Below, one piece after another: positions 38,075-44,013 of a DNA stretch of 64,000 nt. How positions within the stretch are numbered: position 1 is the first letter of the stretch; the number at the start of each line of letters is the position of its first letter. The notes beneath the pieces were generated by a model. The model made no database searches. It saw nothing but the letters and a program-made list of their open reading frames with translations, and was not told the origin of the DNA. Origin of the DNA: Bradyrhizobium sp. CB1717 (lineage in GTDB: Bacteria > Pseudomonadota > Alphaproteobacteria > Rhizobiales > Xanthobacteraceae). Location: positions 7,967,001-8,031,000 of the forward strand of contig NZ_CP121666.1 in NCBI RefSeq assembly GCF_029714325.1, in the 5' to 3' direction. Made by a program: the position numbers and the translations under genes.

Positions 38075-38953
38075 TTACAATTGACGAAAACCGTGCTCGC
38101 CGGTCTTTAGATCATGAGTGTATACGGCTTTCGGTGCATCTAAGGCCAAGTGGTAGAAGTGAATACGAAAAGCCAGTCTTCCGAACAATCGCACCTGTAC
38201 CATTGCATGGGGATTGTTTCCTTCGAAGCACAGCCCGTGAAATGGTGCATAGGTTGGGGCTAACAAACGCTCGACGCTAAAGGCGGCTGTATCGCCACTC
38301 CCTTTCAACACACCCCTAATTTCATTTAGGTGTGCAGTGTCATTGCAAATCGCCGTTCCTGATAGGAGAGCAAGAAACTCGAACGCGATCTTAACCAGCA
38401 CGAGCTCGTTCACTGAGCCACCACCTAAATCTGGCTCGGCTTTGTCCGTCGCCCAATTTATGATGATAAGGCCGGGCAATAGCTCGACCTTCGTCTGCTC
38501 GGGTATGCTCGTTAGGCGCGCTGACGCGGCCCGTACAATTTCGATGTCGTATCCACGCCTCGCCGCTATTCGCTCAATGTGACCAACAGCGTCCTTAGTT
38601 GGCACCATTAGGGACCCATCAACATGCTGAAAGGTCTTCGGCATCAATTCTCCCGCGCGGTACGTCGCGCGGGCGCGGATCGGACCACTCTGAGCAATCC
38701 ATTCTTGTCCCTCCTCAATTAGCTGATAGGTCGCGGCAGGGAGTTCGCCCCTCAGATTTGCGACTGCTAAACGGATTGCGGGATCAGCCTTTGCCCTTGC
38801 CTCAAAGGTCGATCCAAAGACACTATTGCAGGGTTTGCAGACAAAATCGCACGTTAGATCGCCAGCGAGGGAACTCGGGATCACGTGCTCTTCCGATAGA
38901 AGTCCAGGTTGGAGGCAAATAATGCACTGTTTTCCGAACCAAGGTAGTTTCAT
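38075..38953 (-). CDS. HNH endonuclease domain protein
   Basis: 292 residues. N-terminal HNH_5-like zinc motif: CIICLQPGLLSEEHVIP (Cys-x2-Cys, then EHVIP) followed by CKPCNSVFGSTFEARA (second Cys-x2-Cys with Asn and the FE-R motif). The remaining about 220 residues are unassigned and probably recognise the target. Such proteins are frequent in defence islands as restriction-like nucleases. It precedes the exported protein by about 125 bases on the same strand. Enzymatic activity is inferred from the motif only. Confidence 0.7.
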   Translation of the reverse strand: MKLPWFGKQCIICLQPGLLSEEHVIPSSLAGDLTCDFVCKPCNSVFGSTFEARAKADPAIRLAVANLRGELPAATYQLIEEGQEWIAQSGPIRARATYRAGELMPKTFQHVDGSLMVPTKDAVGHIERIAARRGYDIEIVRAASARLTSIPEQTKVELLPGLIIINWATDKAEPDLGGGSVNELVLVKIAFEFLALLSGTAICNDTAHLNEIRGVLKGSGDTAAFSVERLLAPTYAPFHGLCFEGNNPHAMVQVRLFGRLAFRIHFYHLALDAPKAVYTHDLKTGEHGFRQL

Positions 38954-40292: not shown

Positions 40293-41282
40293 TCAAGTGA
40301 TGATCTGTCTTAGCTCGTTTAACGAGAGCCAAGGGCGACGACTATGCACCATGCGATGACAATTTGCGCAAAGAAGGATCAGATCATTGAGCTTGGTTTT
40401 TTCTCCAGGCTGCAGCTCCGAAACTGGTTTGGCATGATGACATTCGATGAAGCCGTTGCCTCGATCACCGTATTTCAGACTGAAGTTAAAACCGCACGCC
40501 TCGCAGTGAAGTGCTCCGTTCGCCTGTAGTGCCTGCAGCTTTCGACGCTCCACAATCCGATAGTCGCGCTCGCGAATTTGGTGCAAACGGGTGAGTATTC
40601 TGCCCTCTTCGGCATCCTCCCCTTCTGGCTCGGGGTTAGGAAAATTCTGAATACCGACCACTGCGGCCCGGATTGCCTTCGCTGCCGAGCGGAGCCGCTC
40701 AGGTTCTTCTGCGAAAACGGTCCAAACCTCCACCTCGCCCCTTCCCCCTCCCGAAAGGCCTTTTCCCTTTTCGGAGGGATCTAAACGCCGGAAATTTTGC
40801 AACTTCATCGCCACGCCATTCGCATTTCGGAAACTTTCCTCACTGCTCGTGGTCGTTGTGCGTGCGAGACGGTTTAGAAGACCGGACAGCTCGATCACGT
40901 CCGGGTGCTTGTCATCCGGAAATGAGGGGCGGTGTCGCAGGTAAAGTTCGAGCGCGAGAATTAGCTCCTCTCTGGTCCAAACTGGATTGCGCCGGGTTGT
41001 CGGCTCAATGATCTTAAAACCTAACTCTCGCAATTTGCGAGCTGTTGGTTGCCCCCCGTGAAATTCACTTTGAGCCAAAGGACCTCGGCTGGGATACTGG
41101 TAGCCGTGCGCCGCGCCTATGATCGCCTTGGCGTCGTATTCGTGCCCATCGGCGTCTACCAGCATCCACCCACGGGATGAACCAAAACCGTACTTCTTAA
41201 GAAAATGGCGTTGACCGAGCCCCCGGAATTCTTCGAGTGCACGAAGTACCGCGCTCGGGTCCGTTAGGTCCTCTATTGTCAT
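40293..41282 (-). CDS. McrA-like HNH restriction endonuclease
   Basis: 329 residues. The N-terminal part (KKYGFGSSRGWMLVDADG, YDAKAIIGAAHGYQYP, ARKLRELGF) matches the head domain found in ScoMcrA-type proteins; the C-terminus is a classic HNH: ALHCEACGFNFSLKYG, IECHHAKPVSEL, LNDLILLCANCHRMVH. Such enzymes cut DNA carrying modified bases or phosphorothioates (type IV restriction). Middle linker about 170-225. First gene of the block bounded by repeats A and B. Modified-DNA dependence is family knowledge, not visible here. Confidence 0.78.
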   Translation of the reverse strand: MTIEDLTDPSAVLRALEEFRGLGQRHFLKKYGFGSSRGWMLVDADGHEYDAKAIIGAAHGYQYPSRGPLAQSEFHGGQPTARKLRELGFKIIEPTTRRNPVWTREELILALELYLRHRPSFPDDKHPDVIELSGLLNRLARTTTTSSEESFRNANGVAMKLQNFRRLDPSEKGKGLSGGGRGEVEVWTVFAEEPERLRSAAKAIRAAVVGIQNFPNPEPEGEDAEEGRILTRLHQIRERDYRIVERRKLQALQANGALHCEACGFNFSLKYGDRGNGFIECHHAKPVSELQPGEKTKLNDLILLCANCHRMVHSRRPWLSLNELRQIIT

Positions 41283-41861: not shown

Positions 41862-42485
41862 TCAGACCATGTGGCACGATTTTGTGCGGTGACAAACGCC
41901 TGGACGGGAGGCATTGGACGGGCGGCCAACTACCTTTTCGGGCGTCGTCATCCAAATCCAGTTCTTCATTTTCTCGAATTCCAGACGTAGAGCCGGTTCG
42001 AGCCTCACGCGCTGGCCCCGTCCAAGCTCCGTCACCGCGCACGCAACTGTCGGAAAGCGAGCCTTGTACATGTCGGTAGCGGCGTTCCCAAAGTATCGAA
42101 AGTCATTGCTCAAGAGGACATTCGCGCGCAAATACTCTGGAAAGTCACCCAGATCGTGCCTGAGGTCTGTAGGTTTGTCGTGAAACTTGGCGTCCTTGCG
42201 ACGCTGAAATCGACCCTGCTTGAGGTAGTAGATGCAATCGTCTCGACTGGCATAACGCTCATCGACGAAATATCGGCCCTCATGAAGTGCCTGAGTGACC
42301 CGCGCGGCGTAGATCAGGCAGTTGTCGCTGTATAGCGAGCTTGCGGCGAAGCCAAAAATCAAGTCACCTACCTGAGCGGTAGCGCGGATCGTCGGCTTGC
42401 ATATTGCAAGCGAGAGAATGCCGTTCTTTACGCAGGGAGCGGCGCCGCTATCAACTGTGAGTTTATAAAAATAGACACGAGGCAT
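41862..42485 (-). CDS. Nmad2-like nucleotide-modification-associated protein
   Basis: 207 residues from ATG 42485 (MPRVYFYKLTVDSG, the conserved N-terminus; the open frame upstream overlaps the previous gene and is not family-like). ILSLAICKPTIRATAQVGD and LIFGFA are the signature of the Nmad2 domain, described by comparative genomics beside enzymes of modified-base metabolism. Later YFVDERYASRDDCIYYL and NVLLSNDFRYFG. It follows the Nmad3-like gene by 8 bases in the same operon. These domains are thought to sense or process hypermodified nucleotides; no activity is proven. The last about 15 residues look atypical and adjoin repeat B. Confidence 0.65.
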   Translation of the reverse strand: MPRVYFYKLTVDSGAAPCVKNGILSLAICKPTIRATAQVGDLIFGFAASSLYSDNCLIYAARVTQALHEGRYFVDERYASRDDCIYYLKQGRFQRRKDAKFHDKPTDLRHDLGDFPEYLRANVLLSNDFRYFGNAATDMYKARFPTVACAVTELGRGQRVRLEPALRLEFEKMKNWIWMTTPEKVVGRPSNASRPGVCHRTKSCHMV

Positions 42486-42493
42486 TTTCGCGA

Positions 42494-43204
42494 TCAATTG
42501 TTTGCTTGAACGAGAACCGTGTGCTGTTCCTTCAGCCAGTTGCAAAAGCGTTCGGGTTTCAAAAATCGCGGCAAACGAGCACTGCGCTGAAGATATCCAT
42601 CTTTTACTGACAGGCCGCCCCAGGCTTCGATTAGATCAGATCGCACCCGGTAAGCTCGATCCTTAAATTCTCCGACTGGTAAGCATCGATCCAACCTACC
42701 TGATACGAGTGGTCGTCCTCGAACGATGAGGTCCAGATTGTTAGGGTCGATAACTCGACGAGAATGCGCGTTTTGGTGCCGAGCCTCGGGCGAGATGTTG
42801 ATGGCCAGCGCGAACTCGTCAACTACAAAAACTCCGATAATGGCATATACAAGGGGACCTGGCTGCAAGGTATCCCGCAGACCAGCATAGAAGACGAGCA
42901 CGTCCCCTCGACTAAGATTTGCTTTGAGCTGCTTGGCTCTTTCCCCGACATCGCCATAGGTCAAGTGATCGAAATCGGGATCCAGGTGCATCTGCTGCAA
43001 TCTTAGATGACCCGGCAGTTCAACGCCAAACGCTGAGAGCGATGCGTTTAGTGAGGCATACGGTCGCTCCAACCCGGGATGAACAGAGCGGCTTTCTGGA
43101 ATGGGCACATAGACGAACTTGCGGGTAACACCATTAACAGGACCATTCCAACCGCCGCCACCTGGGCTAGTGTCAGCGCCAACTCGACAGAGAAGTGCGT
43201 TCAA
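42494..43204 (-). CDS. Nmad3-like nucleotide-modification-associated protein
   Basis: 236 residues. I choose TTG 43204 because GGAGG lies four bases before it and the protein then begins MNALLCRVGADTSPGGGGWN, the family N-terminus; an upstream ATG at 43240 adds 12 odd residues and leaves no ribosome binding site. Further family marks: FVYVPIPES, HLDPDFDHLTYGD, GDVLVFYAGLRD and LVYAIIGVFVVDE. Nmad3 occurs in phages and bacteria near DNA base-modifying genes. Here it is sandwiched between a PD-(D/E)XK nuclease gene and Nmad2, suggesting a modified-DNA recognition/cleavage module. Confidence 0.68.
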   Translation of the reverse strand: MNALLCRVGADTSPGGGGWNGPVNGVTRKFVYVPIPESRSVHPGLERPYASLNASLSAFGVELPGHLRLQQMHLDPDFDHLTYGDVGERAKQLKANLSRGDVLVFYAGLRDTLQPGPLVYAIIGVFVVDEFALAINISPEARHQNAHSRRVIDPNNLDLIVRGRPLVSGRLDRCLPVGEFKDRAYRVRSDLIEAWGGLSVKDGYLQRSARLPRFLKPERFCNWLKEQHTVLVQANN

Positions 43205-43258
43205 GTGTCCTCCGGAACGATAAGCATGCCTGAAATACACGATTTCATCTGATCTAGA

Positions 43259-43930
43259 TCAGCTCTCGCCTGACACGCTGAGAAACAGACGATGAATTCT
43301 GTCCGCCAAAGGATGGTTCGCGGCAAGCCCGACGTGCACATTCTGTCTCAATAATTCAGAATGCCAAGCCGCGGCGTCGGCGGGGCATATGCGCGCCGCG
43401 TCTCCCTTGTCACCGGTAAAGTAAACGAACAACAATCGCGCCGGTACGTTATGCCGATTTAGAAATTCAAGAACAGCGAGACGGTTGCAATATTGATAGT
43501 AGCCGTTAAGCCAATCGCGGTCGGCAGCCACGCCGAGCGCGACCTTTGTTCTGGACAAGGTGGCCCTAATTAGAGGAAGCCCACCGGAAGGGCTGGCCTG
43601 ACAGGAGGATCGAAGCTCTTGGGTGTTGGCCTTCGCTTCCACCAAGAGCCACTCGGTCAGCCCATTTGCTTTGATCTGAGCGACGGCATCCCAATTTGGC
43701 GGATTTCCTCGCTGCGGCCACACCTCTTTCCAGACATCGTGGATGGGGTCCCCTGGAGGAAGAAACTCCAGTCCCTTCAGTTCACCGTCCAGCCATGTCC
43801 TGCTTCGATCGAAAGGGTAATCGAGCCAGGAAGCTACTTCTGCCCCGGTAGTCTCAAGGATGCGCTTTTCCAGCAACATTCGATGCCGCCCGAGGTAACG
43901 CAAGAGATGACACTCGCTGCCATAGCCCAT
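43259..43930 (-). CDS. PD-(D/E)XK nuclease-like protein
   Basis: 223 residues from ATG 43930 (MGYGSECHLLRYLGRHR). Likely active site: Glu50 in WLDGELKGLEFL, Asp81 in NWDAVAQI and Glu98-Ala-Lys100 in TEWLLVEAKANTQEL, the spacing and strand pattern expected for a PD-(D/E)XK fold. First of three tightly spaced minus-strand genes with Nmad3 and Nmad2. An alternative longer start (44017) would overlap the upstream gene. The family is an uncharacterised one seen in bacteria; nuclease function inferred from the motif. Confidence 0.62.
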   Translation of the reverse strand: MGYGSECHLLRYLGRHRMLLEKRILETTGAEVASWLDYPFDRSRTWLDGELKGLEFLPPGDPIHDVWKEVWPQRGNPPNWDAVAQIKANGLTEWLLVEAKANTQELRSSCQASPSGGLPLIRATLSRTKVALGVAADRDWLNGYYQYCNRLAVLEFLNRHNVPARLLFVYFTGDKGDAARICPADAAAWHSELLRQNVHVGLAANHPLADRIHRLFLSVSGES

Positions 43931-44013
43931 TCCTATTTCTGCCACTGCCGCCCCCCGAGCTATCGAAGCCGCGATGTTAGAGCAGTTGCGCGGCAAATGT
44001 CCTCCGCGATACG

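What the first reader, a model, noticed from the sequence alone, without database searches (positions are those of the whole stretch)
41862..43930. Three-gene operon: PD-(D/E)XK nuclease-like + Nmad3 + Nmad2
Sequence shows three tightly spaced minus-strand genes: a protein with E50...D81...E98-x-K100 spacing, an Nmad3-like protein (TTG start behind GGAGG) and an Nmad2-like protein. Nmad2 and Nmad3 are domains predicted from comparative genomics to act in metabolism or recognition of modified DNA bases. A compact bacterial operon pairing both with a nuclease, inside a nuclease-rich mobile region, looks like a modified-DNA-targeting defence system or a self/non-self modification system that I do not know as an experimentally described type.
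Basis: partly seen in the sequence, partly recalled or inferred. Interest (0 to 1): 0.78.

Follow-up and report, generated by a model that had tools for sequence, protein, structure and literature searches.

The report
Modified-DNA reader pair beside nucleases
A soil bacterium carries two adjacent genes, one shaped like proteins that recognise chemically modified DNA or RNA, next to DNA-cutting enzymes, which looks like part of an anti-virus defence that recognises modified foreign DNA; this is a prediction, not yet a tested function.

Summary
In detail: three minus-strand genes encode a PD-(D/E)XK nuclease-like protein (g1), Nmad3 and Nmad2. Nmad3-Nmad2 is a recurrent gene pair; g1 is not part of it: no Nmad gene was found in 86 loci around other g1 homologs (44 of them 12 kb or longer). 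The Nmad3 model resembles EVE/ASCH/YTH modified-base readers, by Foldseek best the DNA-reading domain of an archaeal McrB, so Nmad3 is more likely a reader than a modifying enzyme; each match is weak, but they agree. In the one other of 265 Bradyrhizobium genomes with this Nmad3, the pair is followed by McrB-McrC. That McrB and the HNH gene after the window's pair share an N-terminal domain (47% identity) that also matches the type IV enzyme ScoMcrA. Best reading: a modified-base reader pair giving specificity to exchangeable type IV-like nucleases, with g1 a recent, independent neighbour. More distant Nmad2s often sit by TIR, MazG-like and UDG genes, near a published, unvalidated predicted defence type. 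Not shown: binding, cleavage, phage protection, co-transcription, Nmad2's fold.

The parts
43259..43945 (-). g1: PD-(D/E)XK nuclease-like protein; start given as 43930, likelier GTG start 43945
   Evidence: no Pfam, PADLOC or NCBIfam match up to E 1 and no PHROGs match up to E 0.1
42494..43204 (-). Nmad3; predicted EVE/ASCH/YTH (PUA-superfamily)-like fold; TTG start
   Evidence: Pfam PF18754; model pLDDT 92.9
41862..42485 (-). Nmad2, partner of Nmad3, 8 nt downstream
   Evidence: Pfam PF18753; pairing elsewhere with 76, 46, 103, 112
40293..41282 (-). McrA-type HNH endonuclease with ScoMcrA-like N-terminal domain; candidate type IV-like effector, 579 nt after Nmad2
   Evidence: Pfam HNH; PADLOC mREase_IV hits; EcoKMcrA E 8.3e-6 and ScoMcrA E 2.7e-4; 47% to the N-terminus of the other locus's McrB
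38075..38953 (-). HNH_5 protein; neighbour, link not shown

Best explanation
Nmad3-Nmad2 is a two-gene module that recognises modified bases in foreign DNA. Nmad3, with an EVE/YTH-like fold, would hold a modified base in its pocket; Nmad2 would be its partner, perhaps a second reader. The module would direct or license an adjacent type IV-like nuclease: here the McrA-type HNH protein with a ScoMcrA-like N-terminal domain, in the other Bradyrhizobium locus an McrB with the same N-terminal domain plus McrC. g1 is an independent PD-(D/E)XK-type nuclease that joined this lineage recently and may be an accessory effector. Shown: the families, the pairing, the fold resemblance and the shared N-domain. 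Inferred: base binding, partnership with the nuclease, DNA cutting and phage defence.
Confidence: 0.45

Rival explanations
1. The three genes form one dedicated system: the Nmad pair recognises modified DNA and g1 cuts it.
For: 54 nt gap, same strand; one metagenome contig length, 1902 bases, is listed for both a close g1 (89%) and a close Nmad3 (86%), which suggests one contig with both.
Confidence: 0.15
2. Nmad2 and Nmad3 are enzymes or helpers of modified-nucleotide metabolism and mark the cell's own DNA.
For: The Pfam name; distant plasmid Nmad2s lie near NTP pyrophosphohydrolase and UDG genes, thymidylate synthase and nucleotide kinase, or pyrophosphohydrolase and nucleotide kinase.
Against: Reader-like fold of Nmad3; no such gene recognised among the ten window proteins scanned. 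The enzyme neighbours were seen with the TIR-linked Nmad2s.
Confidence: 0.15
3. The pair reads modified RNA or has a housekeeping role, and its place beside nucleases is island clustering.
For: Many of the matched YTH structures are RNA readers; Pfam-type Nmad3 occurs without an Nmad2 match in 9 of 10 other alphaproteobacteria, some beside genes that look like core genes to my eye (not annotated).
Against: The own-subfamily Nmad3 is rare and patchy (2 of 265 Bradyrhizobium, own included); a ScoMcrA-like N-domain protein follows the pair at both loci.
Confidence: 0.25

Closest known systems
EVE/YTH-McrB and McrBC type IV restriction (PMC7641849 and PMC11090510, passages seen)
   Same: An EVE-superfamily-like reader linked to McrBC; no methyltransferase recognised among the ten window proteins scanned
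ScoMcrA / EcoKMcrA-type HNH enzymes (PMC3009677, search listing and start of abstract only)
   Same: HNH domain and ScoMcrA-like N-terminal domain
   Different: The window protein has 329 aa; the Pfam and PDB-sequence searches showed no sulfur-binding or SRA domain
Predicted NMAD/MazG/UDG/aGPT-Pplase defence domains (DefensePredictor, PMC13092281, two passages seen)
   Same: Unvalidated defence prediction that includes an Nmad domain
   Different: The passages do not name which Nmad; the window pair has Nmad3 and an HNH gene, and no TIR, MazG or UDG gene was recognised by it

Membership tests
Pfam Nmad3 (PF18754) | score over the curated cut-off | tested here: met
   86.3 bits, cut-off 27; residues 3-164 match positions 2-177 of 247, a distant subfamily
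Pfam Nmad2 (PF18753) | score over the curated cut-off | tested here: met
   101.5 bits, cut-off 26.1
PD-(D/E)XK superfamily (g1) | conserved acidic/lysine active-site residues | tested here: met
   81-84 of 86 homologs keep each of four residues
PD-(D/E)XK superfamily (g1) | core fold | tested here: inconclusive
PD-(D/E)XK superfamily (g1) | nuclease activity | not testable with these tools
   needs an assay
EVE/PUA-superfamily reader (Nmad3) | PUA-like fold | tested here: inconclusive
   consistent matches, none strong
EVE/PUA-superfamily reader (Nmad3) | sequence-profile relation to EVE or ASCH | tested here: inconclusive
   none found, but the EVE-ASCH control failed too
EVE/PUA-superfamily reader (Nmad3) | binding of a modified base | not testable with these tools
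   needs an assay
Type IV restriction system | nuclease related to known type IV enzymes | tested here: met
   HNH neighbour; McrBC neighbour in G052; that they belong with the pair is inferred
Type IV restriction system | cleavage that depends on modified DNA | not testable with these tools
   needs an assay
Conserved g1-Nmad3-Nmad2 operon | recurrent linkage of g1 with the pair | tested here: not met

The most novel reading that the evidence does not exclude
Nmad3 and Nmad2 are a free-standing reader pair that supplies modified-base recognition in trans to exchangeable effectors (McrBC, McrA-type HNH, PD-(D/E)XK; TIR with the related Nmad2 branch), the separate-gene counterpart of readers fused to McrB.
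Probability: 0.25. Interest if true: 0.72.

Novelty: new variant of a known kind. Interest (0 to 1): 0.5.

Why it matters
As far as I recall, Nmad domains were named from gene neighbourhoods. A reader fold for Nmad3 would turn 'modification-associated' into a testable role, base recognition, and would explain its place beside type IV nucleases. The g1 family is also a widespread nuclease-like family without a Pfam match: none for the window protein, and only chance-level hits (E 0.12 or worse) for 8 relatives.

Tried and rejected
Conserved three-gene operon: rejected. Constant partner for g1: no cluster of neighbours within four genes reaches more than 4 of 87 loci. Pfam and PADLOC on 134 neighbours within two genes of g1 (45 loci chosen, 42 with a g1 gene called; proteins of 900 aa or more and Arg- or Pro-rich frames dropped) showed 3 DNA methylases and 1 McrBC match among mixed families; only the first 25 of 168 and of 92 families were printed. 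Common origin of Nmad2 and Nmad3: best profile probability 10%, not shown; by eye both have a GD...F segment as in EVE, which is only suggestive. Solved relatives by sequence: no hit for Nmad3, and only hits above E 0.1 to unrelated molecules for Nmad2 and g1. Phages: no match for Nmad2 or Nmad3 in that collection. Wider searches: own-subfamily Nmad3 in 1 of 398 of the phylum sample, Nmad2 profile in 2 of 249 of the order sample, own genome included in each, so few loci could be read. Distant plasmid Nmad2s: 10 of the 11 records were opened; 7 have an annotated TIR gene directly before Nmad2, 2 do not and 1 is unannotated. Contig-length comparison: all 120 g1 and 120 Nmad3 rows, but 118 of 120 Nmad2 rows; one has no length and one (P0353, 1322) I left out by mistake; by eye 1322 matches nothing in the other lists. 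Papers: two papers that I recall as defining Nmad or related domains are not held; searches listed nothing that I saw describe Nmad3 as an EVE-like reader, in a library that lacks most subscription papers.

Full report
Observation. Pfam confirms Nmad3 (E 3.3e-24) and Nmad2 (E 5.9e-29); g1 has no match in Pfam, PADLOC or NCBIfam up to E 1, nor in PHROGs up to E 0.1. The genome is a single 9.23 Mb contig with one Nmad2. It is a Bradyrhizobium by inference: the closest Nmad proteins, 96-97% identical, are named B. japonicum, and its same-genus relative G052 has a contig of 1,014,921 bases, the length listed for an Nmad3 protein named B. australiense. 'B. australiense' below rests on that equality.

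Linkage. Profiles of Nmad2 and Nmad3, own and broader types, find nothing in 86 g1 loci; the median locus is 12.3 kb and 44 are 12 kb or more, so short contigs limit this (for the first 80 and L002). In the homolog lists Nmad3 and Nmad2 share 17 contig lengths (2.4 expected from jittered lengths; 8 of 4 kb or more against 0.08), while g1 and Nmad3 share one (2.3 expected) and g1 and Nmad2 three (2.9 expected). Equal length is a proxy for the same contig, not proof. In a sample of 385 alphaproteobacterial genomes Nmad3 occurs in 11 and Nmad2 in 13; the two genomes with both (the own and G166) have them adjacent, Nmad2 in G166 being only a partial match. Further pairs: B. australiense (L110) and a viral contig (L104), the latter with a broader-type Nmad3. 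The other nine genomes with Pfam-type Nmad3 have no Nmad2 match.

Neighbours. In B. australiense (this Nmad3 is in 2 of 265 Bradyrhizobium genomes, the own included) the pair is followed by McrB (MrcB_N, AAA_5) and McrC, and preceded by a large NACHT/GT4-conflict protein. In the window it is followed, 579 nt on, by an HNH protein whose N-terminus is 47% identical over 96 residues to that McrB's. Both N-termini match ScoMcrA (E 2.7e-4 and 9.3e-13), and the HNH domain matches EcoKMcrA (E 8.3e-6). Among 90 relatives this N-domain is matched in the own genome, B. australiense and G033; G033's 6 kb contig shows no Nmad gene, so the nuclease can exist without the pair. G023 has matches to the HNH protein's middle and HNH regions and to EVE within one 761 aa frame, which suggests the same modules used with an EVE reader.

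Other Nmad2 branches. Of 10 plasmid regions opened, 7 have an annotated TIR gene directly before Nmad2. In the 12 regions, seven (L140-L146) have a MazG-like gene nearby, by my eye; others look solitary. This resembles, but does not equal, a published unvalidated prediction (PMC13092281, passages).

Verdict. The pair is real; the trio is not conserved. A reader role in type IV-like defence fits best but rests on weak fold matches and two loci.

Noticed in passing
L105:6601-8663; also L010 and L013: g1 homologs near ParB/DNA-methylase-like genes (cluster; 3 DNA methylases among neighbours), in L105 on a viral contig; these may be restriction-modification pairs.
   Followed up: partly
L140-L146, L123, L003, L005, L007, L125, L217: Clusters with TIR, Nmad2, MazG-like NTP pyrophosphohydrolase and UDG genes, not every gene in each; L004 has thymidylate synthase and nucleotide kinase instead.
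   Followed up: partly
L110:3422-8338: A 1639 aa NACHT-like protein with a GT4-conflict glycosyltransferase domain upstream of the B. australiense pair.
   Followed up: no
L102:7959-9356: Nmad3 at the start of a 466 aa frame in a viral contig; the rest of the frame is unexplained.
   Followed up: no
window:36000-46000: G+C of 53-57% in 2 kb steps, against 55-63% to the left and 59-65% to the right, with recombinase-like genes around: perhaps a mobile island.
   Followed up: partly
window:35159-36478: DUF2130 protein in the same region, function unknown.
   Followed up: no
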